From a virus, in IMG/VR virus record IMGVR_UViG_3300020160_002181, positions 1 through 32,092 of that record: a DNA stretch of 32,092 nt, one strand, 5' to 3'. Shown here in pieces: positions 9,975 to 31,410 of the stretch (positions within the stretch are counted from its first letter, which is position 1; every line of letters starts with the position of its first letter). The notes under the pieces were generated by a model. It was not told the DNA's origin. It worked only from the letters and a program-made list of their open reading frames with translations, and did not search any database. Position numbers and translations under genes: made by a program.

Positions 9975-10371
9975 GCCAATCTCTCTCTTCTATTGGATAG
10001 AAGCAATAAAGCTCTTCTCCTGCTTCGATGTCTCTATCAGCGTAGTAAATGTCTGCCGTTTCATCATGCCATAAATTCGGCAATTCTGAATGATTAACAT
10101 AATAACTCATATCTATTCGGTCTAGGTGACCATCAATCCAAAAGCCAATTTCATTAGAGTGACAAACGTTTCTAATGTGTTGTTTTACTAAAAAATCACA
10201 ACTTGCTACTTCCTCCCATTCAATAAAATGAGAGAATCCTTTGGGTCCAAATATTGGGTATCCTTCAGGAATATTAGTTAGAGCGAAAACGCCTACTCCA
10301 GCGTTAAGAGTTTTCGACGGTGCTAGCTTGCACTGTGGCAAGTTGAGGTTCTGGATGATGGATTGGCGCAT
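9922..10371 (-). CDS. SET-domain protein, candidate lysine methyltransferase
   Basis: A 149-residue single-domain SET protein. SET domains transfer a methyl group from S-adenosylmethionine to lysine side chains. All the core motifs are visible: GVGVFALTNIPEG (residues 25-37, the cofactor loop normally GxGVFA), the NHSELPN pseudoknot motif (93-99, normally NHSxxPN), and GEELYCFY (118-125), whose last Tyr125 matches the catalytic tyrosine. There are no pre-SET or post-SET zinc cysteines, as in minimal bacterial and viral SET proteins. It lies between tail genes, so virion or host proteins are possible substrates, but this is a guess. The ATG at 10371 overlaps the end of the preceding gene by 68 bases; no later ATG exists before the domain. 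It overlaps the plus-strand gene 9501-9974 at its 3' end. Confidence 0.82.
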   Translation of the reverse strand: MRQSIIQNLNLPQCKLAPSKTLNAGVGVFALTNIPEGYPIFGPKGFSHFIEWEEVASCDFLVKQHIRNVCHSNEIGFWIDGHLDRIDMSYYVNHSELPNLWHDETADIYYADRDIEAGEELYCFYPIEERDWLKEVDPTNSCNKNHTQP

Positions 10372-10987
10372 CTGAAAATTCGGTAAAATAACTATAATCA
10401 GTAAATTTATTTCTCTTGTTCTCTACAGAGTATACATTTAAATCAATTTTATATCCTGGATTATTTTGAATAGGTTCGTAAACCCAAGCGTCATCATGCC
10501 AGATGATTCTATTGTTTGGATAGGCATAGAAATTGCCATTATCCATTTTAAAGAAATGAGCGCATTTATGTTCTGGGGTTTCGCTGAAATTGGTATCCAG
10601 CATTGCTTTGTTCTCCCATGACCAATCCATAGTAAACATGTATTCGCCACACTCTTTAGTGTTGGATGGCGTGATTAACTTTGCTCTCAATCCTTTGAGC
10701 CTCTGGCGCACTTGAACGTCAACATAGGGACTAAAGCAGTCCCAATACATTGCGTGCTGTAAAGACACTGGATCGCAAGGCTTCCAGCAGAAGGCTGTGA
10801 TTGGGCGACGAGTCCAGTTTACCCCATTATTAAGATAAGCTTCGAATAGTGGGACTCTCTTTTCGATTGAAGCTACAGAATGCACATCGGCTGGAGTGTA
10901 GTCTCCATGACCTTTCTCATGATTAAATAAATATTCGTTGCGGATTAAGCAAGTAATTGTGGGAATATTATGGTTGAGATAAGGCAT
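10304..10987 (-). CDS. Conserved phage protein of unknown function
   Basis: A 227-residue protein I do not recognise with confidence. It is rich in Trp, Tyr, His and Asn and has distinctive stretches such as WTRRPITAFCWKPCDP (about residues 58-73), QHAMYWDCFSPYVDVQ and NGNFYAYPNNRIIWHDDAWV (about 151-170). It lacks membrane segments, a signal peptide and nucleotide-binding motifs. Cys residues are scattered and do not make a clear zinc site. The ATG follows CCTTTAACAT, three bases after the stop of the upstream fibre gene, so the two are probably co-transcribed, and its end overlaps the SET-domain gene. Location suggests a tail-associated or post-translational-modification role, possibly with the SET protein. 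Confidence 0.7.
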   Translation of the reverse strand: MPYLNHNIPTITCLIRNEYLFNHEKGHGDYTPADVHSVASIEKRVPLFEAYLNNGVNWTRRPITAFCWKPCDPVSLQHAMYWDCFSPYVDVQVRQRLKGLRAKLITPSNTKECGEYMFTMDWSWENKAMLDTNFSETPEHKCAHFFKMDNGNFYAYPNNRIIWHDDAWVYEPIQNNPGYKIDLNVYSVENKRNKFTDYSYFTEFSDAPIHHPEPQLATVQASTVENS

Positions 10988-13953: not shown

Positions 13954-13961
13954 ATACGTTA
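13954..13961 (-). promoter_or_regulatory. TAACGTAT element before the SH3-like gene
   Basis: On the minus strand TAACGTAT begins with the stop codon of the ClpC-like gene and ends eight bases before the ATG at 13945. The same eight bases, extended to TAACGTATCAT, occur at the starts of the PHP-domain gene and the helicase gene. It may be part of a promoter or leader signal, or chance in A+T-rich spacers. Confidence 0.25.
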
Positions 13962-16367
13962 AGCGGTTTCAAAAATTACTTCGTTTTGACTTATTTTTGC
14001 CGAAATAGTTGCCGCTTTGTTTTGGCAGAGGAATTTGGCTAAATTGATTTCAAAGTTTTTGCGATAGATTTTTTGAATAGATCTTGCGTTGCTTCCCTCT
14101 TTTGCTATGATATTAAGCAATAGATCAAAGATGCCTTCTTCGATTTGAATCGTGCGACCCTGCTCAAGCAGTAAAGCTTTTGTTTTCTCAATCATTGTTT
14201 CAAGAATTTTATGAAACTCTTTGGTGGAAATTTTCTTGAAAGAAACCACTTCATCAAGCCGACCCAAGAATTCTGGTTTAAAGAATTTTTCGACAGCCTT
14301 TTTGTCAACGTCTTCTTGTTTTTCAATTACAGAATTGAATCCCATAGAAGGCTTTATGGCAGCTTCTTCTTGACCAATATTGCCAGTGAGAATAATGATA
14401 GTGTTGGTAAAGTCAATTCTACGGCCAAGGCTATCAGTTACGCATCCATCGTCCATGATCTGCAAGAGAATGCTATTGATTTCTCTGTTTGCTTTTTCAA
14501 TTTCATCAAATAAAACAACGCAGTTCGGATGATTGCGAACAAACTCGGTTAATACTCCGCCCTCTTCGCAGCCTATATATCCAATAGCTGATCCAATAAG
14601 CTTATTGATAGAGCTTGCTTCTTGATACTCGCTCATGTCGAGTTTAAGCAGCAGCTTCTCATTACCAAAGAACTTTTCGGCTAATAGTTTCGCGGTCCAA
14701 GTTTTGCCAACTCCAGTTGGGCCAATAAACAAGAATTTAGCTAAAGGCTTTTTCTTATCCTTGAGTCCAGCCCTTGCGCAGATTAAAATATCTGAAAGTT
14801 TTTCCATGGCTTCATCTTGGCCAAAGACGTTTTCCTTCATGACTTTTGCAATCTGTTCGTCTTCAGAGTTTTGCGCGATTACTATTTTATTCTTATTGAT
14901 TTTTAATTTGTCCGCAAAGACAGTGATTAAATCATCTAACGTGATTGCCACATGCTTCTTGCTTTTTTTAGACCACTCAAAAAGCTTCTCGCTATATGAA
15001 GCTATCATGTCTTCACATCTATCGCGAACAGTTTCGCTATCCATTTTTTCTAAATCTCTTTTGATCTTTTTTTCTAAAGAGATTAAAGATTGTGGCATTT
15101 TAAAATTTTTGATTTTAACTTTTGAGCTAATAGTATCAAGAACATCAAAAGCTTTATCTGGAAATTTGCGGTAAGGCATGTATTTGTCGCAAAGATAAAT
15201 CAAATCATTAATCATCTCTTCCGAGAAGGAAACCTCATGAAACTCTTCAAAGCTCTTTTTAGCGCTCATCATGATTTGTTTGGTCTGCTCTTTGCTTGGT
15301 TCGTCAATGCTGATAGCTTCAAAACGGCGTTTTAATGCGCCATCTTTTTCAAAATACTTCTTATACTCAGCATGAGTTGTTGCTCCAATACAGCAGATTT
15401 CGCCTCTAGCTAGTGATGGTTTAATCATGTTAGCAACGTCTAACGATCCCTCTCCGCTGCCAGCACCAATCACTGTATGAATCTCATCAATAAATAAAAT
15501 ATAACGCCTGTCTTTTTTAAGCTCGTCAAGCAATCCTTGAAATCTTTGCTCAAATTGTCCGCGATATTTCGTGCCTGCTATCATTGAGGCTACATTTAGT
15601 GAGATAACAATTTTTCCGCCAAGCAAATAAGTAACTTGTTCATTAACAATTTTCGAGGCTAATCCTTCTACAATGGCCGTTTTACCAACTCCAGGATCTC
15701 CTATAAGAATAACATTGTTTTTTGTTTTCCTGAGAATGGTTTCTACTAATGCGTCAATTTCCTTGTCTCTGCCAAATACGTTATTCACGCGATCAGTCAT
15801 TGCGAGAGCGTTTAAATTTGTGCAATATTTTTCAATATATTTAGCCTTGTTATCTTCTCTGATTTCTGCTCTTTCGGAAACTGCCTTTTCTTCAACCTCT
15901 TCCCCTTCTTTCGCTTGAGGCTTTAAATGGGAAATGAGGCTTTCGGAAATCTTTTCATGAGGGACTTTCTTGTAATCTAAATATCCTCTGACTGTAGGAG
16001 ATGTAGTTAATAAAGCATATAAGAAATGCTCTATCCCAATATACTCTTGGTCTAAATCTTCGCTTACTTGATTGGCGAATTTAACAATTTCTTGAACTTC
16101 GTTGTGCCAGAGTTTTTCTCGATTCTTCTTCTTGAAGAATTCTGGATGATTTTGCTCTACAAACGGAATGATATTTTTAGCAAGAGTTCTATAGTCTATT
16201 TTATATGGTTTAAAGATAGAATCAAAAAGCGGATAATTGATTTCAAACAAAGCTTTAAATAAATGAGCGCAGTTTACGCGTTCATGTTTAGCTTGTTCAG
16301 CTTCTTTTTGTGCGTTTTCTAAAACTTTTTTGACCCTTGGAGTCAAGTTGAAATTTTTCATCCTCAT
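13959..16367 (-). CDS. ClpC-like AAA+ protein unfoldase
   Basis: An 802-residue two-ring AAA+ unfoldase of the ClpA/ClpC class, which unfolds proteins and feeds them to the ClpP protease. It has a Clp N-domain (about residues 5-145), a first AAA+ module with Walker A GDPGVGKT (223-230), pore loop KYRG (267-270) and Walker B LFIDEIH (291-297), a short coiled middle domain (about 424-470) of ClpC rather than ClpB size, and a second AAA+ module with Walker A GPTGVGKT (549-556), pore loop GYIGCEEGG and Walker B VVLFDEIE (617-624). PSMGF at 673-677 sits where ClpA/ClpC carry the ClpP-docking loop (IGL/VGF); ClpB lacks it. No clpP is in the window, so a host ClpP partner is inferred. A second ATG at 16361 is an alternative start. 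It follows the polymerase gene by 12 bases. Confidence 0.93.
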   Translation of the reverse strand: MRMKNFNLTPRVKKVLENAQKEAEQAKHERVNCAHLFKALFEINYPLFDSIFKPYKIDYRTLAKNIIPFVEQNHPEFFKKKNREKLWHNEVQEIVKFANQVSEDLDQEYIGIEHFLYALLTTSPTVRGYLDYKKVPHEKISESLISHLKPQAKEGEEVEEKAVSERAEIREDNKAKYIEKYCTNLNALAMTDRVNNVFGRDKEIDALVETILRKTKNNVILIGDPGVGKTAIVEGLASKIVNEQVTYLLGGKIVISLNVASMIAGTKYRGQFEQRFQGLLDELKKDRRYILFIDEIHTVIGAGSGEGSLDVANMIKPSLARGEICCIGATTHAEYKKYFEKDGALKRRFEAISIDEPSKEQTKQIMMSAKKSFEEFHEVSFSEEMINDLIYLCDKYMPYRKFPDKAFDVLDTISSKVKIKNFKMPQSLISLEKKIKRDLEKMDSETVRDRCEDMIASYSEKLFEWSKKSKKHVAITLDDLITVFADKLKINKNKIVIAQNSEDEQIAKVMKENVFGQDEAMEKLSDILICARAGLKDKKKPLAKFLFIGPTGVGKTWTAKLLAEKFFGNEKLLLKLDMSEYQEASSINKLIGSAIGYIGCEEGGVLTEFVRNHPNCVVLFDEIEKANREINSILLQIMDDGCVTDSLGRRIDFTNTIIILTGNIGQEEAAIKPSMGFNSVIEKQEDVDKKAVEKFFKPEFLGRLDEVVSFKKISTKEFHKILETMIEKTKALLLEQGRTIQIEEGIFDLLLNIIAKEGSNARSIQKIYRKNFEINLAKFLCQNKAATISAKISQNEVIFETA

Positions 16368-16379
16368 CTTTTTACACTC

Positions 16380-17564
16380 TTATTTGATTTCTGACAGTTT
16401 CATATAAATCTTTTCGTCTAAAATAGACATTTTATCAATAAAAAGAACGCCATCGCCCTTCTTACCGCTAATAATAACGATACTTTCTTCTTTGGGAAGT
16501 TTATTACCGTTCTCAAGATACTCTGTAAGGCGCATTTTATTGTTAGAATCAAGCAGCATTGCTTTGATTTTGCCGCTTTCATCAGACAACTCTATTTTTG
16601 CATATTTGTTTCCGTTCTGACTTTTCTTTCTGTAGCAATCCTTCACTACTCCTACCATACGAACATTCTCGTTAATGTCAAGAGAGTTGAAGGTCAAACA
16701 ATCAACGTATCTAGAAGCGCTATCTTCAGTAAAAATATCTCTAATGTTTTGCGAATAAGAGTAGCCAAGCAGTTTGGTTTCAAAATACCAATTGGCGAAT
16801 TTTGGATGGTTAATATTTTTGTCATAAATCTCTTTATAACCTGCATACTTTTGTTTGAAAGTGGAGAATCGTTTTTCGCTCATGATGACTTTTGAATCAT
16901 CTCCAACAGATTTCTGCTTCACACAATCGTGGATGGTATTTAAAATGTCATAATTATATTTCTCGCCAAGAGAGATAAAAAGTCTCTTTTCTCTGTCTGT
17001 GAGAATATTAAAAGTTTGAGCTTCTAAAACTAATCTGCACCTGTCTTGAGTGAAGCTATTGAGAACTCCCGCTTGAATCAAAGCGGAAAGGTTTCCGATA
17101 TTCAAACCAACTTGTTTCGCGACTTGAAAAACATCGTATTTATTATTCAGTTCTGTTTTGCTGAATTCGGTTAGGCTGCTCATTGTATTGTCCGAAATAC
17201 CTTTGATGCTGTTTAAACCGAATCGAATGTTTCTTCCTTCAATAGAAAAGTCTGTTTTAGACTTAATAAGATCTGGCGGCAATAGCTTGATATTGAAGAG
17301 CGCTAATTCTTGGCTGATCTTGTTAATTTCTTCGTAAGAGTCTGGCTCAAACTGAGTCATTTTCAACAAGCTCAAAAAGAAATTCTGTGGATATTTGAAT
17401 TTGAGATAAACAGTCCAAGCGGCTAAGATAGAGTAGGAAATCGAATGCGAGTTCGACGTTACAAGATTCTTTAGATAGAAATTATGATCTGAATGGTCAA
17501 CTTCTAAGTCAATGGTTTTCTTGACTCCTAATGATTTAAAAGATTTAATTCTTGTAGTTTGCAT
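16380..17564 (-). CDS. dnaE: DNA polymerase III alpha C-terminal half with split-intein C domain
   Basis: A 394-residue protein. Residues 1-38 are the C-terminal half of a split intein, ending FYLKNLVTSN; residues 39-394 begin SHSISYSILAAWTVYLKFKYP, the DnaE segment normally following 'FNK'. After that come the fingers and tandem helix-hairpin-helix region (INKISQELALFNIKLLPPD, IRFGLNSIKGIS) and an OB-fold domain (286-394; VRMVGVVKDCYRKKSQNG, KYAKIELSDESGKI). It cannot work alone; it needs trans-splicing with the 18483-20258 product to give an 851-residue polymerase core. The ATG overlaps the end of the endonuclease gene by 37 bases, so the first codons are read in two frames. There is no recognisable beta-clamp motif at the extreme C-terminus, though this is hard to judge by eye. 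Confidence 0.93.
   Translation of the reverse strand: MQTTRIKSFKSLGVKKTIDLEVDHSDHNFYLKNLVTSNSHSISYSILAAWTVYLKFKYPQNFFLSLLKMTQFEPDSYEEINKISQELALFNIKLLPPDLIKSKTDFSIEGRNIRFGLNSIKGISDNTMSSLTEFSKTELNNKYDVFQVAKQVGLNIGNLSALIQAGVLNSFTQDRCRLVLEAQTFNILTDREKRLFISLGEKYNYDILNTIHDCVKQKSVGDDSKVIMSEKRFSTFKQKYAGYKEIYDKNINHPKFANWYFETKLLGYSYSQNIRDIFTEDSASRYVDCLTFNSLDINENVRMVGVVKDCYRKKSQNGNKYAKIELSDESGKIKAMLLDSNNKMRLTEYLENGNKLPKEESIVIISGKKGDGVLFIDKMSILDEKIYMKLSEIK
17451..17564 (-). other. Split-intein C-terminal domain (38 residues)
   Basis: Encodes residues 1-38 of the polymerase C-half. IDLEVDHSDHNFYLKN is the intein F block and LVTSN the G block; the terminal Asn38 would cyclise and the next residue, Ser39, is the first C-extein nucleophile. 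The usual penultimate His is Ser, as also in the cyanobacterial split DnaE inteins (which end in ASN). No endonuclease motif is within it. Confidence 0.92.
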
Positions 17565-18481
17565 GTCAAAATATTTTTAAACTCTCCGTTATTGATTTCT
17601 GTTTCCCACAACTCTATCATAGTCCACCCCATCTTGTCTAGGAATTTCTTTTTGGATTTATCTCTGCCAAAATTTCTTCTTTGAACGCTGCTTTTCGGCC
17701 CATCTGGATAAAAACGAGGATCTATATGAAAATACGTTCCTTGGCATTCAATTGCTATTTTGAATTCTGGAAAAGCAAAGTCTAATGAAAAATAAACAAG
17801 TGGATACTCTTCTGAAAATGGTGAGATTAAATTTAATTCTGATAAAAATTCTCTCATTTTAATATGTATGGAAGTCTCTCTTTTAAAAATTCCATTGCCA
17901 TACCTTTCTGCCGTTATTTTTCTAAGTTGATTTTTTGTTTTTTCAGAATGTTTTCTTCCAGTATGTCCGTGAACTTTTCTTTCTTTTGCTGATTGAGATT
18001 GTTTAGACTTTGTTTCTTCTGTGGCTATTTTTCCCAATCTTCTGCCTCTCATTTTCTCAGCCCAATCAAGATCACCTTTATTCCAAGGCTTTTTTCCAAA
18101 CATTGGATTCCCAGAACCTTTGCGTTCTTTAGAAATTCTTTCGCAAAAATTTTTAAATTTTTCATTAATATTCTTATTCGTACCCTTACCTAATTTAAAA
18201 TTAGAGAACAATACTCCAGTCCCGTTAATTTTGAATCCAACCTCTTCTTTTGTTTCTAAGCATTTTGGATATTCAGAAATATAAAGTTTAATATAAGAAA
18301 CTAAATTAATATTATGATAACTTATTAAATAATTTTCAAACTTATTTAAGTAATAAGCTCCTCCTTCCCTTGTTGGAAAAAGTTTGATTATTTGTTTTTT
18401 GCTTACTCCATCTAATAAGCAATAGTTGAATTCTTCTATGGGTAGTAATCTATGGTTTGAATCTGTTTTAATTAGCCTCAT
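17528..18481 (-). CDS. NUMOD3 plus Vsr-like homing endonuclease
   Basis: A 317-residue endonuclease between the two polymerase halves. The middle has NUMOD3-type DNA-binding repeats: GSGNPMFGKKPWNKG (122-136), then RLGKIATEETKSK and GRKHSEKTKNQLRK further on. The C-terminal 100 residues are a Vsr/PD-(D/E)XK-type nuclease: SLDFAFPEFKIAIECQGTYF with Asp234 and Glu245, HID (252-254), the basic segment RRNFGRDKSKKKF, and GWTMIELWETE. This matches the EDxHD Vsr-related homing endonucleases. It probably makes a strand break in intein-free dnaE and so promotes copying of the cassette. I chose the ATG at 18481, one base after the TAG of the upstream half; an upstream ATG at 18499 would overlap it. 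It is visibly more A+T-rich than the polymerase genes. Its end overlaps the next gene by 37 bases. Confidence 0.9.
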   Translation of the reverse strand: MRLIKTDSNHRLLPIEEFNYCLLDGVSKKQIIKLFPTREGGAYYLNKFENYLISYHNINLVSYIKLYISEYPKCLETKEEVGFKINGTGVLFSNFKLGKGTNKNINEKFKNFCERISKERKGSGNPMFGKKPWNKGDLDWAEKMRGRRLGKIATEETKSKQSQSAKERKVHGHTGRKHSEKTKNQLRKITAERYGNGIFKRETSIHIKMREFLSELNLISPFSEEYPLVYFSLDFAFPEFKIAIECQGTYFHIDPRFYPDGPKSSVQRRNFGRDKSKKKFLDKMGWTMIELWETEINNGEFKNILTCKLQELNLLNH

Positions 18482-18482
18482 A

Positions 18483-20258
18483 CTAATTATTACACACAAT
18501 AAACCAATTATTCTCCAAGATTTCGCTCATGGGATGCATTTTCAAATCATGCTGACATAAAAATTTATGCTCCATTGAACATGTGACAGATAATCCATTC
18601 TCCATTTCAAATTCAAAAACTTCTTTTTCGCTTTTCATAATGTCTAAAACAGAAACGTAATGATCTTCTTTTTTCCCAACATCGAAAGCTTTGATTTTAT
18701 CCTCTATACAAATCTCTTTTAGCATTTTAATTTCACCGTTTTGCAATTCTACCGTCTCTTCTTCCCAAGCGCATTTATTAAAACTGTAATTCGCGGAATC
18801 TTCGGCGACTTTCCAAAGAACATCTCCAACAACAGGGTCAAGTTTGTTTTCTTCGATCTTGTCTTTAATTTTTTGTTGCCAAGCTCCCATTTGGTCAACT
18901 TTCTTTTTGCCAACAATGCGGCGAAGCTGTTCTGACTCATCTAAAGTGAATCCTACTTTAACAGCCATTTTCATAAGCTGTTCTTGGTATAAGGGAATGC
19001 CTCCAGTATATTGAAGAACCTCATCAAATAATGAATGAACGCTTTGAAACTCTCCCGTCTCCACATATCGAGTATAGCTACTAAGGAAGTCTAAAGCTCC
19101 AGGTCTTGCGATAGCTACAACAGCAGAAAGCTGTTCTAAATTTCTTGGCTTTACTTTTTGGCAAACATGAAAGTTTGTATCAGCTTCGATTTGGAAAAGA
19201 CCTTGGGGAGTAATGATGCTTTGAAGATTGTCGTAAATCTCCCTATCCTTTAAGTCAACAGAAAGAATATCTAAATTGATTTGAGAACAGACATCTTGAA
19301 TCACAGATAATGTTCTGAGTCCTAAAATATCGAATTTGACGCACAAGCTCGCCACATCGTTCATGTCATACCCTGACACTAGATCGCCCTCAGAAGTCGT
19401 CTGAAGGGGCATTATATCCTCTAGAGCGTAATGGCTAATGGCAATGCCAGATGGATGAACTCCAGTGTTTTTGATTAAGCCTTCTAGTTTTTGAGCAATC
19501 TCAAATACTCTGGGATTTTCAATAGCAAACTCTTTGAATTTTTCGCTCTCTTCTACTGCGTTTTTTAGAGAAGCTACTTTGCCAAACTTTTTTGGAATCA
19601 AATCGCTAATCTCATTAACGGTAGACTCTTGCATTTCTCCAACTAACTTGCCGCACTCTTTGATGCATAGCTTACTGCTAAGAGTATTTAATGTTAAAAT
19701 CTTACAAGTCTTACCAGAATATTTCTTCTCAATAAACGAGAGAACTTCATGGCGGCGTTCATAAGCAATGTCATTGTCAACGTCTGCGAGAAGAGAACCA
19801 TCAAGATAAACTTCATCTCCAACAATAATCTTTTTAGCTCGACTCTTAGAGACGAATCGCTCAAAATAAAGGTCGTATTCAATCGGATCAACCTTGGTCA
19901 CCTTAATGAGATAAAGAACAAGCGAACCAGCAGCGCTTCCACGCCCTGGCCCTGTTGGAATATTGTTCTCATGGCAGAAGTTCAAGATGTCCCAGTTCAA
20001 CAAAACATAATCAATAAACCCTAGCTCTTCAAAAAGCTGTAGTTCGGTTTTAATTCTGTCGTAATAGATTTGAGCATTTTCTTTTTTGTCGATACCTTTA
20101 TCTAGAACTCCTTTGTGGCAAAGCTTACGCAAGAATTGGTAATTGTTTGAAGAGCTTGGGATGCCCAAAGAATCATAATATTTTTGTTCAATAATGATTT
20201 GTGGGAGTTTAACACCAGGTAGTACTGGTTGTTCGTATTTTTGAAATTCGTTTAACAT
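18483..20258 (-). CDS. dnaE: DNA polymerase III alpha N-terminal half with split-intein N domain
   Basis: A 591-residue protein: residues 1-495 are the palm/thumb/fingers of a C-family polymerase and 496-591 an intein N-half. DnaE motifs are clear: GPGRGSAAGS (103-112), ADVDNDI (158-164), in which Asp159 and Asp161 match the first two catalytic aspartates of E. coli DnaE (PDFDVDF), VKFDILGLRTL (307-317) with the third, Asp310, then LYQEQLMKMA and GKKK. The PHP domain is absent and encoded separately at 20885-21658. About twelve extra residues (IIVGDEVYLDG) precede the catalytic aspartates. The sequence stops being DnaE at NYSFNK/CAWEE. The start ATG follows GAAATTTAAT, one base after the exonuclease gene's stop. 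Confidence 0.95.
   Translation of the reverse strand: MLNEFQKYEQPVLPGVKLPQIIIEQKYYDSLGIPSSSNNYQFLRKLCHKGVLDKGIDKKENAQIYYDRIKTELQLFEELGFIDYVLLNWDILNFCHENNIPTGPGRGSAAGSLVLYLIKVTKVDPIEYDLYFERFVSKSRAKKIIVGDEVYLDGSLLADVDNDIAYERRHEVLSFIEKKYSGKTCKILTLNTLSSKLCIKECGKLVGEMQESTVNEISDLIPKKFGKVASLKNAVEESEKFKEFAIENPRVFEIAQKLEGLIKNTGVHPSGIAISHYALEDIMPLQTTSEGDLVSGYDMNDVASLCVKFDILGLRTLSVIQDVCSQINLDILSVDLKDREIYDNLQSIITPQGLFQIEADTNFHVCQKVKPRNLEQLSAVVAIARPGALDFLSSYTRYVETGEFQSVHSLFDEVLQYTGGIPLYQEQLMKMAVKVGFTLDESEQLRRIVGKKKVDQMGAWQQKIKDKIEENKLDPVVGDVLWKVAEDSANYSFNKCAWEEETVELQNGEIKMLKEICIEDKIKAFDVGKKEDHYVSVLDIMKSEKEVFEFEMENGLSVTCSMEHKFLCQHDLKMHPMSEILENNWFIVCNN
18486..18773 (-). other. Split-intein N-terminal domain (96 residues)
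   Basis: Encodes residues 496-591 of the polymerase N-half. It begins with the nucleophile Cys in CAWEEETVELQNG (block A), continues to EVFEFEMENG and then CSMEHKFL, which aligns with block B of the Npu/Ssp DnaE inteins (ATKDHKFM), the usual Thr being Ser, and ends PMSEILENNWFIVCNN before TAG. This 96-residue length suits the N-half of a naturally split intein. Confidence 0.92.
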
Positions 20259-20259
20259 A

Positions 20260-20895
20260 TTAAATTTCGATGTCGTAAATTTGTTTTTGAAAGATTTGGA
20301 AAGTCATTTCAATATCGTAAAGTGCGTCGTGGAGTTTGGAAGGGTCATGTGGAATGTCGTACAATTTAAGCAGGTGAGCTTGGCTAGTTTTAATGCCTTT
20401 TTCTCTGTAATTCAACCACCTATATTGCCAAGAAATTAAATCATTTTTATCTGATGTCTTAACCTCTTTAGCAATGGACATTGCGATAGCTTTGGTGTCA
20501 AGGATATTTTTTACATAAGAATAATCTGTTTCTAAACCAGCGCTCTTCATCCAAGAGTTGATCATGTAAACATCAAATCCTAAAATGTTTTGTCCAATGA
20601 TTTTTGTATTTTTATCCTTGAGAAGAGGAAGAAACTCTTTCAAGATTTCTTGCGGACTCTGAGCGAGAGAACGATATTTTGCATAATCAAATCCAGTGAT
20701 TCTTGCAGCTTCATCGCTGATCTTTAAATCGTCCCACCAAATGTATCTTTCTTGACGGCTAATGATTTTCTTTCCGACAGCTTCAATCCAAGCGATTTGC
20801 CAAGGTCTAGTATGTCGAAGATTCAAACCTTCTGTCTCAGTGTCTAAGACAAGGTATTTTTGACAAAAATTAAATCGTAATAAATTATTGTTCAT
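20260..20895 (-). CDS. DEDDh 3'-5' exonuclease, DNA polymerase III epsilon-like
   Basis: A 211-residue exonuclease that probably proofreads for the phage polymerase. The catalytic set of the DEDDh class is present: LVLDTETEG with Asp18 and Glu20, GQNILGFDVYMI with Asp108, and LHDALYDIEMT with His189 and Asp194. It has no C-terminal extension for alpha binding that I can recognise. The gene lies between the separate PHP gene and the polymerase core gene, and stops one base before the core gene starts. I chose the ATG at 20895, which overlaps the PHP gene stop by 11 bases, the same overlap as four other junctions here, over a GTG at 20934. Function is well supported; direct pairing with this polymerase is inferred from gene order. 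Confidence 0.9.
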   Translation of the reverse strand: MNNNLLRFNFCQKYLVLDTETEGLNLRHTRPWQIAWIEAVGKKIISRQERYIWWDDLKISDEAARITGFDYAKYRSLAQSPQEILKEFLPLLKDKNTKIIGQNILGFDVYMINSWMKSAGLETDYSYVKNILDTKAIAMSIAKEVKTSDKNDLISWQYRWLNYREKGIKTSQAHLLKLYDIPHDPSKLHDALYDIEMTFQIFQKQIYDIEI

Positions 20896-21658
20896 ATTGT
20901 TTGTAAGATTCCCAGCAAAAAGTGTCGCTTCCACAATGTTCTAAGTTAGGATTAGAGAGCGAGCGTTCTTTCCCAAAGGTACGATTGCATAAGCATTTGT
21001 AAGTCTGCCAAGCTGAAAAATCTTTCTTATTTTTGTAGTAGATAGATTTTACTTTTTCAATATGCAAGTCATTTTCTTGAGCATACTTAGATGCTTTTTC
21101 AAGAATGAATTGATCAAACGGAAGCTCGTTATCTTCAATAAAAATAGTTGGCTTTGTGAAGCTAAAATTAGGAACGCATTTTCTTCCGATGAAATTATTC
21201 ATGTAGATGAATGAATCATAAAATGGAATACAAAGCTTCAAATCTTCTGTCCAGTGCTTTTTAAGCAGGTCGCAGTCTACGATGCCTTTTGATTCTTTAT
21301 TCGCGATGGAATAAATTTTTGTTAAAGCTTTGACGCCTTCATCATTTTTGCCCATTAAAACTATTTTATGCAGAGTATCTTTCGACTCCAAGGATTCTGG
21401 CGTTCTTTGATTTACGCATCCGATCCTTAGTCCGAAAATTAATTGGATACCAGCTTCTGCACATTTTGTATGCGCATTTAAGAAGCCAATCATGGAATCT
21501 TCAACCAGAACAATTTGTTCTAGATTCTCTTCTTTGGCGATAGCAATAATGCTATCAGATCCACCCTCTTTGACTTTAGAGGGAGATTCTAATGTTAGTA
21601 TCGACTTTCCAATACTGTATGTTGATTTGAAGATTGGTATCATATTAGACTTTAACAT
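20885..21658 (-). CDS. Stand-alone PHP domain of DNA polymerase III alpha
   Basis: A 257-residue protein matching the N-terminal PHP domain of DnaE, which in ordinary bacteria is fused to the polymerase core. The family frame is visible: PIFKSTYSIGKSILTLE where DnaE has HxHSxYSxLDG, then IIAIAKEENLEQIVLVEDSMIG for the 'ALTDHGN' region, then CAEAGIQLIFGLRI for 'KAGIKPIIGxE', and a late segment on YYKNKKDFSAWQTYKCL as in DnaE. The metal-binding His residues of HxH and TDH are replaced, so it is probably an inactive structural domain. It should dock on the polymerase core in trans. The gene precedes the exonuclease and core genes, in the order in which those domains lie in PolC proteins. The start overlaps a TAACGTATCAT element; a second ATG at 21643 is possible. 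Confidence 0.78.
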   Translation of the reverse strand: MLKSNMIPIFKSTYSIGKSILTLESPSKVKEGGSDSIIAIAKEENLEQIVLVEDSMIGFLNAHTKCAEAGIQLIFGLRIGCVNQRTPESLESKDTLHKIVLMGKNDEGVKALTKIYSIANKESKGIVDCDLLKKHWTEDLKLCIPFYDSFIYMNNFIGRKCVPNFSFTKPTIFIEDNELPFDQFILEKASKYAQENDLHIEKVKSIYYKNKKDFSAWQTYKCLCNRTFGKERSLSNPNLEHCGSDTFCWESYKQYEQ

Positions 21659-27103: not shown

Positions 27104-27443
27104 ATAAAAAATCTTTGATGTTCTTTATTTTTTTTGCCACTTCTCTTCTTTCTACAGTGGGATCATCTTTAAGTACGATCTCGCTGACGTTTAATTTTAT
27201 GTCAGAAGTATAAATCTTGAATCTATTATCAAGATCTTTGAGAATCTTATCTGCAAACAGGATAGCTAGAGAATCCCCTTTTAAAGAAAAGGAAGTGTCT
27301 CTTAAAAATTCAATGCTGTATCTTTCGATTAAACGATTCAGCAACACATACTCTCGTTGCCAAAATTCTCTCCTTGATTTAAGGGGAATTTCGACAAACT
27401 TAGATACTATGAGTTTCTTGTTTGGCTTTTTTGATTTATCCAC
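27090..27443 (-). CDS. Small basic protein of unknown function
   Basis: A 117-residue, strongly charged, largely helical protein I do not recognise. It has a Lys-rich N-terminus (KSKKPNKK), a helix around REFWQREYVLLNRLIERY and a C-terminal helix ending FLYEKD; no catalytic motif or membrane segment is visible. Its GTG start overlaps the stop of the dehydratase gene by one base (TAGTG), and an in-frame TAG two codons upstream forces that start. Its stop overlaps the RecA-like gene by 14 bases. It links the sugar genes to the recombination genes, and by position and charge may be a recombination accessory protein. Confidence 0.65.
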   Translation of the reverse strand: MDKSKKPNKKLIVSKFVEIPLKSRREFWQREYVLLNRLIERYSIEFLRDTSFSLKGDSLAILFADKILKDLDNRFKIYTSDIKLNVSEIVLKDDPTVERREVAKKIKNIKDFLYEKD

Positions 27444-28480
27444 TAACTATTATAAGGCCAACCAAGGTCTGATGCAACCATTTTTTCAACGAGTTTTGAG
27501 AAAGATGTTTTTGGGCTCCAGCCAAGCTCTTGTCTTGCTGGGGTTGAATCTCCCCAAAGTAAATCAACTTCGGCTGGACGATAAAATGCTGGATTAATAA
27601 CAACGAGTTTTCGTTTTGTTTCTTTATCAATAAACACTTCTTCAATACCATTACCAGACCATTCGCCATCAATAAAAGCTTCTTTAAACGCTAGCTCTAC
27701 AAACTCTCTTACTGAATGAGTCTCGTTGGCAGAAAGAACATAGTCTTTCGGACTATCTTGATTGAGCATGAGCCATACACCTCTCACAAAATCTTCTGCA
27801 TCACTCCAATCTCTTTTAGCATCAAGGTTGCCAAGTTCCATAGGAAGGAACGACTCGTTGTTTCTTTTTGCGTTATAGATTCTCGCTACGTTCTTGGTGA
27901 TTTTACGCGTGACAAACTCCTCTCCGCGACGGACACCCTCATGATTAAACAAGATGCCTTGAACGGCGTAAATATTGTAAGAATCGCGATAGACTTTTAC
28001 AAGGTGATGAGAAGCGCTTTTTGCAGCACCATATGGAGAACGTGGTCTAAAAGGGTGATTAATATCTTGTGGAGAATAAACTACATCTCCAAATTGCTCA
28101 CTGCTTCCAGCGTTATAGAATCGTGTAACTGGTGAGTAGTTGCGGATGGCCTCTAAACAAAAGAGAACTCCCATACAATTTGTTTGCATGTGATTAACTG
28201 GCATCTTCCAGCTATTACCGACAAAAGAATTAGCGGCAAAATTAATAAAGTAATCTGGCTTAATTTCGCGAATTACTTGATTAATATTCTCAGGATCAGT
28301 AATGTCTAAGTCAATTGTAGAGAATCGTTCGTGATTCTTTAAATGCTCTATGTTTTGATGGTTAGGAACGCTCAAACGTCGATGCGCTCCATACACAAAA
28401 AAATCTGTATTCTTTAAAAGATAATCGGCCATTAATGAACCGTCTTGGCCAGTAACTCCAGTGATAATAATTGATTTCAT
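27443..28480 (-). CDS. gmd: GDP-mannose 4,6-dehydratase
   Basis: A 345-residue short-chain dehydrogenase that converts GDP-mannose to GDP-4-keto-6-deoxymannose, the precursor of GDP-fucose, GDP-rhamnose and perosamine-type sugars. It has the NAD(P)-binding loop GVTGQDGS (about 8-15), NFAANSFVG, AGSSEQFGD, the SPYGAAKSASHHLVK Tyr-x3-Lys catalytic pair, LFNHEGVRRGEEFVTRK, LGNLDAKRDWSDAEDFV and RPAEVDLLWGD, all diagnostic of GMD. Length is normal. No GDP-fucose synthase or reductase is in the window, so the next step must come from the host or from upstream genes. Its ATG overlaps the upstream stop by four bases (ATGA). Confidence 0.96.
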   Translation of the reverse strand: MKSIIITGVTGQDGSLMADYLLKNTDFFVYGAHRRLSVPNHQNIEHLKNHERFSTIDLDITDPENINQVIREIKPDYFINFAANSFVGNSWKMPVNHMQTNCMGVLFCLEAIRNYSPVTRFYNAGSSEQFGDVVYSPQDINHPFRPRSPYGAAKSASHHLVKVYRDSYNIYAVQGILFNHEGVRRGEEFVTRKITKNVARIYNAKRNNESFLPMELGNLDAKRDWSDAEDFVRGVWLMLNQDSPKDYVLSANETHSVREFVELAFKEAFIDGEWSGNGIEEVFIDKETKRKLVVINPAFYRPAEVDLLWGDSTPARQELGWSPKTSFSKLVEKMVASDLGWPYNS

Positions 28481-28824
28481 GATTTAAATTCTGTTGCTTC
28501 TATAAGAGGGAAAAACTTATTTTGAAGAGTTATTTTACAATTATACCTTTTCATATTTAATTCATCAACTTCTTTTGCTGAGATATTGCCATATCTAGCT
28601 TTTTCTACAGCTTCAAAAGTCATTAAATTAACATCAACTAAGTTTCGAAATTCTGAAGAGTTTATAACTTCCAAATGTTTATATTCTCCGATTTGATACA
28701 GAATATGCTCATAGCATAAATCCCTAATTGCAATAGATTTTTCGTTATTAACTTTGCTATGCTTAACATTTAAAATAGCTAAGTAATCGTAAGCGTATCC
28801 TTCGTCAACTAAAAGAGTAATCAT
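28477..28824 (-). CDS. Conserved hypothetical protein in sugar cluster
   Basis: A 115-residue protein (ITLLVDEGYAYDYLAILNVK at its start, FEAVEKARYGNISAKEVDELN in the middle). It resembles short unclassified proteins that accompany sugar and methyltransferase genes, but I cannot name a family or function. The fold looks mixed alpha/beta, with no membrane segment. I chose the ATG at 28824, which follows the upstream TAA by one base (TAATATG), the same kind of junction as the homing endonuclease start; a longer form from 28911 would overlap the glycosyltransferase gene by 86 bases and add a residue run that looks like shadow coding. Confidence 0.65.
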   Translation of the reverse strand: MITLLVDEGYAYDYLAILNVKHSKVNNEKSIAIRDLCYEHILYQIGEYKHLEVINSSEFRNLVDVNLMTFEAVEKARYGNISAKEVDELNMKRYNCKITLQNKFFPLIEATEFKS

Positions 28825-28825
28825 A

Positions 28826-29512
28826 TTAAAAATATATATAATTTGAATCGGGATGTGAATAATTCCATTCAACAGGATTGAATAATGGATTATTTGACGG
28901 CTGATAAACAATAGTTTTAGCTCCGACAGATGTAGCTAAATGCTCGTCTCCAGTATTGCACCCAATATAAACTCCAACCTTTCTAAAAAGACAAATCATC
29001 TTTTTTAAATCTAAATTCTTGATCTTATTTTCGCATTCTTCCTTATATTCGTTTTCGAGATTAATCATAGTGATACAATTACAGTTAGCCTCTTTTAGGG
29101 TTTTTTGTAATTCAATACTTAAATCAACGGGAATATTCCTGATTGTCGCCCATTGTTTCGAACAATGAGGAGTAAATATTACTGGATTTTCAAATGGTTT
29201 TAAAAATGTATCAACCCATTTTTCCGAATCTTCATCTGTATATAAAACCAACGGCCTATTGTCTAGATCATTAGCATTTTTAGGAAAAAAATTTCTTAAT
29301 TTTCTGGTGGCATAATGGCCTGATCCTATATCTGGCAAATTAAAAATATTATCAGTAATTTCAATATTAGCTAAGTTTTGAAATAGTATTGAATATTTTT
29401 CTTTATTTGGGGGCAATTGAATAGTAAATTCGTTTGGAAAATATTTGCACACTGAAGTTAGCAATAATAAATCTCCCAATCCTGATGTAGACGATCCAAA
29501 TTTATTTAACAT
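28826..29512 (-). CDS. GT9-like (heptosyltransferase-type) glycosyltransferase
   Basis: A 228-residue protein with the layout of ADP-heptose:LPS heptosyltransferases (GT9, GT-B fold). The N-terminal loop SGLGDLLLLTSV (10-21) matches 'GLGDxxxxTP', and the C-terminal part VGVYIGCNTGDEHLATSVGAKTIVYQPS matches 'DSGPxHLAxAxGxPxVxLFGPT', the donor-binding region. It is shorter than usual (about 350), mainly in the first domain, so it may be a reduced form. It may transfer a sugar to a phage or host glycan. It overlaps the upstream glycosyltransferase by 11 bases. This and the genes upstream of it are visibly more A+T-rich than the replication genes, which suggests separate acquisition. Confidence 0.75.
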   Translation of the reverse strand: MLNKFGSSTSGLGDLLLLTSVCKYFPNEFTIQLPPNKEKYSILFQNLANIEITDNIFNLPDIGSGHYATRKLRNFFPKNANDLDNRPLVLYTDEDSEKWVDTFLKPFENPVIFTPHCSKQWATIRNIPVDLSIELQKTLKEANCNCITMINLENEYKEECENKIKNLDLKKMICLFRKVGVYIGCNTGDEHLATSVGAKTIVYQPSNNPLFNPVEWNYSHPDSNYIYF

Positions 29513-30308
29513 ATTGATTGATTTTATCTATGGTAGATGAAATGATTGCTTGTTTACAGAAATAATTTTTATAATTATTTTTTGACTCTTCTTCGTTAAA
29601 GTCTAAGATAATTTTTTGAATAAAGTCGTCCGATAATTCGTTCCAATCTTGGACACAATATTGATTTGCAAATTTATCAGTATTTAGAATCTCTTCGTTT
29701 TCATCTTTTTGGAAGATTACAATATTTTGAAAATACAAAGATTCAAAATATCTATACGATGTGGAGTGGAATGCTCCCTTTGGAGCTAAAACAATTTTGC
29801 TATTCTTTAAGATATTTAAATATTCGTCTGGATTTAAATTTTCATTAAAATTTTGTAAATTATTCCTATGCGTATAATGCAAGTATTTTTTACAATTAAG
29901 CTTTTCTATTTTTTCTTTAAAAGAAATTCTAGATGGATGAATGAATCCAGCGAAAAATATATCATACTCTCTTTTATCAAATGGTATTACCTCATGCGAG
30001 TATAAGTTGTCGTTAATAAATTTATTGTTACCTAACGGAAATGGAACGTATCTTTGATCGTTATAGTCTCTATAAAAATTATTAAAACATATTTTGAAGT
30101 TTTGATTTTTAAGTTGAGAATCTCTCTCGCAACCAGTTAGAAATACAATATTATTTTCCGTATTTAAGTCTACGTTAATATCATTCGTTATGTAAAAATT
30201 TAGATCATCGTGAAAGAAAAAATCAGCAACTTGAGTGACTATATTCACCAAATAATTAAATTCATCTGGTACGACATCTGTAAAATGATATTTTAAATGT
30301 ACCTTCAT
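29502..30308 (-). CDS. Exostosin-like (GT47-type) glycosyltransferase
   Basis: A 268-residue protein resembling the exostosin domain of glycosyltransferase family 47. The best evidence is YDIFFAGFIHPSRISFKEKI (about 114-133), then LNPDEYLNILKNSKIVLAPKG and the donor-site segment SYRYFESLYFQNIVIF ('RxFExxxxGxIPV'). The N-terminal half, which would bind acceptor, is more divergent. No membrane anchor or signal peptide is seen, as expected for a phage cytoplasmic enzyme. It overlaps FkbM-like gene by four bases (ATGA) and the GT9-like gene by 11. The substrate cannot be predicted. Confidence 0.72.
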   Translation of the reverse strand: MKVHLKYHFTDVVPDEFNYLVNIVTQVADFFFHDDLNFYITNDINVDLNTENNIVFLTGCERDSQLKNQNFKICFNNFYRDYNDQRYVPFPLGNNKFINDNLYSHEVIPFDKREYDIFFAGFIHPSRISFKEKIEKLNCKKYLHYTHRNNLQNFNENLNPDEYLNILKNSKIVLAPKGAFHSTSYRYFESLYFQNIVIFQKDENEEILNTDKFANQYCVQDWNELSDDFIQKIILDFNEEESKNNYKNYFCKQAIISSTIDKINQYVK

Positions 30309-30874
30309 TTATGAAAAACTACATTGAATGGCGGATGCTCAATTTTATTATACCCAAGATTTAAAAGCATATTTTGAACATCGGAACCATTTTGACCGAA
30401 TGTGTAGGAACCATCTGAATGAATGTATTCATACTCGATGTAGTCTATGGAATATTTTTGAAAATCAATCTGTTTAATGATTTTGCAATCCAATCCCTCT
30501 GTATCTATATAAAATTTATCTATTTTTGAAAGGTTGAGTGAGTCTAAAAATTTTTTAATATTCAAGCATTTCACTTTAATTTCTTTAACGTCAAGACGAT
30601 GCCTTAAAACATGATTAATATCAATGGATGAAATTTGACTATGAATTAAATCTTCTGGAAAGAAGAATGAGATTTCGTCTTTATCTTCAAAATCTACGAT
30701 AGCCAATTCAAAAAATTCGACAAATTTAAAGTCTTGGTATTTAATTTTAGCTTCTTTTATCTTCTCGTTAAGAGGTTCTACTAAAATAAGTCTATCAATA
30801 GCATGGCTATTTTCTGAGACGAATTGAAATACATGGTCATTGCCATCATGACAGCCTATTTGGATAATATTCAT
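30305..30874 (-). CDS. FkbM-family methyltransferase
   Basis: A 189-residue SAM-dependent methyltransferase of the FkbM type, enzymes that O-methylate sugars or polyketides. It shows motif I IIQIGCHDGNDHVFQF (3-18), LILVEPLNEKIKEAK for the acidic SAM-ribose contact, and KIDKFYIDTEGLDCKII, the FkbM hallmark ('xxKIDVEGxE'). Length is at the short end of the family. It is linked by four-base ATGA overlaps to both neighbours, so the three methyltransferase genes and the glycosyltransferases form one tightly coupled unit, and probably modify one glycan. Confidence 0.85.
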   Translation of the reverse strand: MNIIQIGCHDGNDHVFQFVSENSHAIDRLILVEPLNEKIKEAKIKYQDFKFVEFFELAIVDFEDKDEISFFFPEDLIHSQISSIDINHVLRHRLDVKEIKVKCLNIKKFLDSLNLSKIDKFYIDTEGLDCKIIKQIDFQKYSIDYIEYEYIHSDGSYTFGQNGSDVQNMLLNLGYNKIEHPPFNVVFHK

Positions 30875-31410
30875 AAAGTTTCTTTGTACATGATTCGGCT
30901 ATTACACTCTCCTTTAATAATGTCCGTTAAATCAATGATGGAAAAGTCCGAGTACTTATTTTTTAAAAAATCAAACGAGTGATTATAAATATCCTCCAAA
31001 ATAATAATTGATTCACTTGATTTCAATAATTGTTGATAATTTTGAAGAAAAAAATCTTGCGTCTCTAATGTATGCGGACCATCATCAATAATAATATCAA
31101 AAGATATACTGTTATCCTTAAAGTAGTCTATTGTTTTATTATTATAGGCATCTCCAATAAAAATATTTACATTTTCTCCGTATTCGTGAATGTAATATTG
31201 AGAAATATCAATAGCATATATGTTCGCATTTTGAAAAAAATGTTCCCATAATTTTAGAGAATTACCATACTGAATTCCTATTTCTAAAATATTTATTTTT
31301 TTATCTTTAAATTTTTCAAACTTTTCGCTATAAAAATTAGAGACGTATTTATGATATAATTCTTTATCAGATTGATTGTTTGTTTGACGAAAGGTATCTA
31401 TTAGATTCAT
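30871..31410 (-). CDS. Class I SAM methyltransferase (CmcI/rhamnosyl O-methyltransferase-like)
   Basis: A 179-residue methyltransferase. Motif I is INILEIGIQYGNSLKLWEHFF (39-59), followed by NANIYAIDIS, the acidic SAM-binding strand, and FDIIIDDGPHTLETQDFFLQN with a later SIIILEDIY, matching enzymes such as the cephalosporin hydroxylase/CmcI group and macrolide or rhamnosyl O-methyltransferases that use 'DDGSH' metal-binding residues. So it likely O-methylates a sugar hydroxyl. It starts and ends in ATGA overlaps with its neighbours. Confidence 0.8.
   Translation of the reverse strand: MNLIDTFRQTNNQSDKELYHKYVSNFYSEKFEKFKDKKINILEIGIQYGNSLKLWEHFFQNANIYAIDISQYYIHEYGENVNIFIGDAYNNKTIDYFKDNSISFDIIIDDGPHTLETQDFFLQNYQQLLKSSESIIILEDIYNHSFDFLKNKYSDFSIIDLTDIIKGECNSRIMYKETL

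What the first reader, a model, noticed from the sequence alone, without database searches (positions are those of the whole stretch)
16380..20258. Replicative DNA polymerase broken by a split intein with a homing endonuclease gene in the gap
The DnaE sequence stops at NYSFNK and resumes at SHSISYS in another gene. Between them lie a 96-residue intein N-half starting with Cys, a 317-residue NUMOD3/Vsr-like endonuclease gene, and a 38-residue intein C-half ending in Asn before Ser. Joining the exteins restores an uninterrupted DnaE of 851 residues containing all three catalytic aspartates. The cassette type (fractured gene with Vsr-like endonuclease) is known from Dassa et al. 2009; a phage DnaE carrying it in this composite layout is worth a close look. 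Both halves must be made and spliced for the phage to replicate by this enzyme, so splicing could act as a control point.
Basis: partly seen in the sequence, partly recalled or inferred. Interest (0 to 1): 0.9.

Follow-up and report, generated by a model that had tools for sequence, protein, structure and literature searches.

The report
Phage replication polymerase broken by split intein
A phage's main DNA-copying enzyme is encoded in two genes that must be stitched together as proteins after a mobile DNA-cutting gene broke it apart, and relatives show the same spot empty, unbroken, broken by other cutting genes or left with a decayed one, so the birth of split inteins can be followed and tested.

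Summary
On the minus strand dnaE stops after ...NYSFNK and resumes at SHSISYS in another gene. Between them lie a 96-aa intein N-half (Cys1), a 317-aa endonuclease gene and a 38-aa intein C-half (Asn38, +1 Ser). The joined exteins (851 aa) align to solved DnaE without a gap at the join. This is a member of the known 'fractured gene' class. A 94%-identical relative has an intact dnaE with nothing at the site. The 1323-nt cassette recurs at 90.5% DNA identity in a phage whose DnaE is saturated at synonymous sites, so the cassette moves. The endonuclease belongs to the Vsr/EDxHD (I-Bth0305I-like) homing family and is under purifying selection. At the same DnaE site I found 38 distinct phage inteins: 9 cis and 29 split, with Vsr-like, LAGLIDADG, inverted GIY-YIG, IntN-fused HNH or decayed endonucleases. 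One cis/split pair is 96.7% identical, differing by an 896-nt insert that starts with a stop codon and ends with a start codon. The 'control point' idea has no support: 77 of 80 close relatives lack the intein.

The parts
18774..20258 (-). N-extein of DnaE: palm and finger part, 495 aa, ends NYSFNK; has the catalytic aspartates
   Evidence: Pfam DNA_pol3_alpha 7e-61, DNA_pol3_finger 1e-30; alignment to Taq and E. coli DnaE
18486..18773 (-). Intein N-half, 96 aa, Cys1, block B SMEH
   Evidence: Pfam Hint 0.0018, below cut-off; joined halves match Npu DnaE intein 2keq 8.6e-9 and gp41-1 6e-6; colinear with cis intein L144
17528..18481 (-). Free-standing homing endonuclease gene, 317 aa, NUMOD3 plus Vsr/EDxHD catalytic domain (D234, E245, H252, D274 invariant)
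   Evidence: NUMOD3; 17-member profile hits I-Bth0305I 3r3p 2.3e-6 and Vsr 0.0025; fold match Vsr 1cw0 8.5e-4, 3r3p 2.4e-3; dN/dS 0.05
17451..17564 (-). Intein C-half, 38 aa, ends TSN before +1 Ser; start codon lies inside the endonuclease gene
17528..17564 (-). 37-nt overlap: endonuclease 3' end carries the IntC start region in another frame; overlap conserved in relatives
16380..17450 (-). C-extein of DnaE (HHH and OB domains), starts SHSISYS, 356 aa plus stop
   Evidence: Pfam HHH_6 1e-15, tRNA_anti-codon 2e-5, just below cut-off; phrog_405 from profile position 793, where the N part ends
20260..20895 (-). DnaQ-like 3'-5' exonuclease gene between the PHP and polymerase genes
   Evidence: RNase_T 4e-13; match in 80 of 80 relatives' loci
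20885..21658 (-). Separate gene for the DnaE PHP domain, 257 aa
   Evidence: PHP 5e-8, phrog_405 N-terminus; match in 76 of 80 loci

Best explanation
The phage dnaE is a fractured gene. An intein sits at FNK|SHS; an EDxHD/Vsr-like homing endonuclease gene lies in the intein's linker and brings a stop codon for the N-half and a translation start for the C-half, so the gene is expressed as two proteins. The intein halves associate and trans-splice, joining DnaE-N to DnaE-C and freeing the intein (inferred from intact class-1 catalytic residues and homology to Npu DnaE and gp41-1 inteins, not assayed). The endonuclease, made on its own, cuts intein-free dnaE alleles in mixed infection, and repair copies the whole cassette into the cut site (movement shown by sequence; the cutting inferred). 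The element is a selfish passenger that splicing makes tolerable.
For: Exact empty site at 94% protein identity (L003, L002). Same 1323-nt cassette in L008: 90.5% DNA identity; where the amino acid is shared the codon is identical in 77-83% of cases in the cassette against 45% in the exteins. dS 0.53 for the endonuclease, 0.57 IntN, 0.38 IntC; exteins saturated. The cassette dS is below the extein dS of 0.82 between the window and its empty sister L003, so the cassette spread after those lineages split, or was lost in L003. Endonuclease dN/dS 0.05. Endonuclease family by profile and fold. Splicing residues kept: C1, SxxH, N38, +1 S. Unsplit relative colinear with the joined halves. Inverted GIY-YIG gene in the same gap in L010/L011 rules out read-through there.
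Against: No splicing or cleavage assay. Penultimate intein residue is Ser, not His (as in Npu DnaE). No endonuclease target site was determined. Relatives are uncultured viral contigs; the window-like cassette nearest in sequence (L008) lies on a 4.2-kb contig.
Confidence: 0.88

Rival explanations
1. The intervening stretch is removed from RNA (a group I or II intron with an endonuclease gene), so no protein splicing is needed.
For: Endonucleases of this family also occur in introns (3r3p is named a mobile intron protein).
Against: No Rfam intron family in the region or window. The coding sequence either side of the endonuclease gene is a recognisable intein in frame with both exteins, with catalytic residues kept over wide divergence. 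Unsplit inteins occupy the same site in relatives.
Confidence: 0.02
2. The split is kept because trans-splicing controls when active polymerase appears (regulatory role).
For: Both halves must be made for an intact DnaE; halves retained after endonuclease decay in L083/L084 and L149.
Against: 77 of 80 close relatives have no intein. The cassette moves between lineages. Retention after decay also follows from the difficulty of restoring the frame, and the decayed copies keep just the end that carries the IntC start.
Confidence: 0.06
3. dnaE is simply broken and dead; another polymerase replicates the phage.
For: Two or more breaks in the gene; no tau-binding region recognised.
Against: All fragments are open and conserved; dN/dS 0.04 between window and L003 N-exteins; catalytic Asp present; the replication genes helicase, primase and nuclease lie alongside.
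Confidence: 0.04

Closest known systems
Fractured genes (Dassa et al. 2009, 10.1093/nar/gkp095; title seen through the reference lists, text not held, content from own knowledge)
   Same: Conserved replication enzyme gene cut in two by a split intein with a free-standing, often Vsr-like, endonuclease gene in between; mainly phages
   Different: I could not check whether dnaE was among their eight enzyme types. Beyond the class definition: here one dnaE site shows empty, cis, split, swapped-endonuclease, inverted and decayed forms
Cyanobacterial split DnaE intein (Npu, Ssp)
   Same: Best PDB match (2keq, 8.6e-9); split DnaE; similar split position (96+38 vs 102+36 aa); penultimate Ser; same FNKSHS motif of DnaE
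   Different: Inserted 3 residues upstream (Y|CFNKSHS), halves encoded apart in the genome, no endonuclease gene; common origin not settled by the tree
PolB split intein with HNH gene of Pseudomonas jumbo phage MIJ3 (PMC6892783)
   Different: B-family polymerase, HNH endonuclease
I-Bth0305I and Vsr (EDxHD homing endonucleases, PMC3943268)
   Same: Catalytic domain by profile and fold; NUMOD-type DNA-binding modules
   Different: Resides in a split intein rather than a group I intron; N-terminal region not in those structures

Membership tests
Fractured gene | Conserved enzyme gene broken into two ORFs that complete each other | tested here: met
Fractured gene | Split intein halves flank the break | tested here: met
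Fractured gene | Free-standing endonuclease gene in the gap | tested here: met
Fractured gene | Halves trans-splice | not testable with these tools
   needs co-expression; residues C1, H69, N38, +1 S present
EDxHD/Vsr-like homing endonuclease | Vsr-like catalytic fold and residues | tested here: met
   3r3p 2.3e-6 and 1cw0 0.0025 by profile; Foldseek 1cw0 8.5e-4, 3r3p probability 1.00; D234, E245, H252, D274 invariant in 17. With 5 sequences alone it was not significant
EDxHD/Vsr-like homing endonuclease | Cuts the intron- or intein-free allele | not testable with these tools
   no activity data; empty alleles exist
Cyanobacterial DnaE split intein | Insertion at Y|CFN of DnaE | tested here: not met
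   site is FNK|SHS, 3 residues downstream
Cyanobacterial DnaE split intein | Sequence kinship to that intein clade | tested here: inconclusive
   best PDB hit, but the tree neither shows nor rejects one clade (AU p 0.48)
Group I intron | Intron RNA core around the endonuclease gene | tested here: not met

The most novel reading that the evidence does not exclude
At one phage dnaE site a single intein lineage cycles reversibly between cis and split states: an endonuclease gene enters the linker as a ready-made stop...start insert and splits the intein, endonucleases of unrelated families replace each other, and loss of the insert re-fuses the intein (L157, nested among split inteins, would be a healed one). 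Split inteins would then be a recurrent, reversible state of endonuclease occupancy rather than a one-way outcome of genome rearrangement; the cyanobacterial split DnaE intein could be a relic of such a phage element.
Probability: 0.42. Interest if true: 0.78.

Novelty: new member of a known kind. Interest (0 to 1): 0.6.

Why it matters
Split inteins are workhorses of protein engineering and their origin has been argued about for years. This site gives nearly isogenic cis and split forms of the same intein, exact boundaries of the breaking insert, and intermediates (endonuclease fused to IntN; decayed endonuclease), so the steps can be tested at the bench. It also yields some 29 distinct natural split DnaE inteins as new trans-splicing candidates.

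Tried and rejected
Endonuclease model from 5 sequences: pLDDT 51, not used; rebuilt with 17 (pLDDT 76). Rfam for an intron: nothing at gathering, only chance hits. Isolated phages: no DnaE split intein of this kind found; weak matches in ribonucleotide reductase of a Campylobacter phage and in unannotated Lak phage records. Bacillus phage KLEB27-3 and Rossellomorea phage phiT1 have dnaE broken at other places. Common origin with the cyanobacterial intein: unresolved; long branches meet, and the genome scan was biased because Npu was in the query alignment. Repeats flanking the cassette: only chance-level pairs. The texts of Dassa 2009, Caspi 2003, Taylor 2011 and Carvajal-Vallejos 2012 are not held.

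Full report
OBSERVATION. The N part of DnaE (20258-18774, 495 aa) ends NYSFNK and runs straight into a 96-aa intein N-half (18773-18486). A 317-aa endonuclease gene follows (18481-17528), then an ORF starting at 17564 whose first 38 aa are the intein C-half, ending TSN at 17451, followed by SHSISYS... of DnaE (17450-16383). The joined exteins (851 aa) align with Taq DnaE residues 380-956 (E 7e-86) with no gap at the join, and the three catalytic aspartates are aligned. In PHROG family 405 the N part ends and the C part begins at the same profile position, 793.

EMPTY SITE. A scan of viral contigs with the N-extein gave 403 relatives, of which the best 80 were kept. 77 of the 80 have extN and extC directly joined with nothing between; 3 are occupied. 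L003 and L002 are 94% identical in protein and have intact dnaE across FNK|SHS.

MOBILITY. L008 carries the same cassette of exactly 1323 nt at 90.5% DNA identity, although its DnaE is only 76-80% identical. Where the amino acid is the same, the codon is the same in 77-83% of cases inside the cassette but 45% in the exteins. dS is 0.53 (endonuclease), 0.57 (IntN) and 0.38 (IntC), with saturation in the exteins; between the window and its empty sister L003 the extein dS is 0.82. So the cassette's common ancestor is younger than the split of the window from its empty sister: it entered by transfer, or was lost in L003. The endonuclease is under purifying selection (dN/dS 0.05).

THE ENDONUCLEASE. 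One sequence gives NUMOD3 and only weak nuclease matches. With 17 relatives from the same gap, the profile hits I-Bth0305I (3r3p, E 2.3e-6) and Vsr (1cw0, 0.0025). The model from these 17 (mean pLDDT 76; catalytic domain about 78-93) matches Vsr and I-Bth0305I by fold. D234, E245, H252 and D274 are invariant. It therefore belongs to the EDxHD/Vsr-like homing endonucleases.

THE INTEIN. The joined halves match the Npu DnaE intein (8.6e-9) and gp41-1. A natural unsplit intein at the same site, L144, aligns with the joined halves over their whole length with two single-residue gaps, none at the junction (47% identity): nothing is missing. Trans-splicing is inferred, not shown.

THE WIDER FAMILY. 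A scan with the IntC/extein junction found 45 contigs with inteins at DnaE FNx|SH. With earlier hits and after removing identical inteins there are 38 distinct phage inteins (counted). 29 are split: 17 with an intact Vsr-like gene (window included), 2 with a decayed one (L083/L139, L149), 7 with LAGLIDADG genes (one truncated), 1 with a GIY-YIG gene in the opposite orientation (L010/L011), and 2 in which IntN is fused in frame to NUMOD4-HNH and IntC starts 11 nt later or overlaps in TGATG (L143, L150). 9 are unsplit, 3 of them with HNH-like insertions (L170, L179, L180; the HNH match of L179 is weak). L097, counted here, is unsplit and inserted one residue upstream. On the intein tree the fewest changes are 7 between cis and split and 3 between endonuclease families; many nodes are weak, so these are minimum counts on one tree, and well supported branches alone force only 3 changes of the cis label.

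HOW THE BREAK IS MADE. L148 (split, Vsr-like gene) and L157 (cis) have inteins 96.7% identical over 393 nt while their exteins are 79% and 72% identical. They differ by one insert of 896 nt, which begins with the stop codon TAG and ends with the start codon ATG...GAA|TAG...ATG|CAAGCT.... Through the Vsr-like group the IntN stop is followed within a few bases by the endonuclease start (TAGTATG type), and the endonuclease 3' end overlaps the IntC start, by 37 nt in most. The insert thus carries both signals that turn one gene into two. All three truncated endonucleases (L139, L149, L178) lost the 5' side and kept the 3' end that carries the IntC start, as expected if that end is needed to express DnaE-C; with three cases this is suggestive only. 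A similar cis/split pair exists in a clamp-loader gene (L113/L105, intein DNA 86%, exteins 72% and 67%).

DIRECTION. L157 is nested among split inteins (supports 96/93 and 99/97), which favours re-fusion of a split intein. Repeated entry of the endonuclease into cis inteins at the same point is not excluded.

COMPARISON. The arrangement meets the definition of fractured genes (Dassa et al. 2009, known to me; the text is not held here, and whether dnaE was among their enzymes could not be checked). A comparable PolB case is in phage MIJ3 (PMC6892783). The cyanobacterial split DnaE intein lies 3 residues upstream in the same motif; kinship is possible but unresolved. Hence: new member of a known kind, with an unusually complete set of states at one site.

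dnaE is broken a second time without an intein: PHP gene, DnaQ-like exonuclease gene and polymerase gene in that order. The PHP gene matches in 76 and the exonuclease gene in all 80 relatives' loci; the four without PHP are short loci cut off upstream. A control role of splicing has no support.

Noticed in passing
window 20260-21658 and L002-L081: In this phage group the DnaE PHP domain and a DnaQ-like exonuclease are separate genes upstream of the polymerase part, an intein-free break of dnaE; a distant relative (L094) has PHP and polymerase in one ORF.
   Followed up: partly
L004 5189-5974 (-), L006 5205-5996, L008 286-1104: Further LAGLIDADG_3 endonuclease genes between the exonuclease and polymerase genes, one inverted; the dnaE locus attracts several endonuclease genes.
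   Followed up: partly
L113 and L104-L112, L115: Phage clamp-loader gene with the same intein in cis form (L113) and split by a nuclease-like gene (L105 and others); the split insert begins with TAG after ...ILSP.
   Followed up: partly
L120: Oscillatoriales cyanobacterium CG2_30_40_61: an unsplit DnaE intein at the cyanobacterial split-intein site, 74% identical to joined Npu halves.
   Followed up: partly
L143 4171-4986, L150 4177-4998: IntN fused to NUMOD4-HNH, with IntC starting at once behind (11 nt gap; TGATG overlap): a split intein whose endonuclease stayed on the N-half.
   Followed up: partly
L093 1844-5000: DnaE broken again upstream of the intein, with several small genes including a DnaQ-like exonuclease inside the break.
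   Followed up: no
window 13959-16367 (-): ClpA/ClpB-like AAA+ ATPase gene directly downstream of DnaE-C; in relatives too (L082, L083).
   Followed up: no
window 27443-31410 (-): GDP-mannose 4,6-dehydratase and FkbM-type and other methyltransferase genes in the phage.
   Followed up: no
window 10304-10987 (-): Gene matching a phage ferredoxin-annotated family (phrog_3704, 1.5e-50).
   Followed up: no
L136, L137: Isolated phages KLEB27-3 and phiT1 have dnaE broken at other sites, one with an HNH gene in a ~1-kb gap and no Rfam intron hit.
   Followed up: partly
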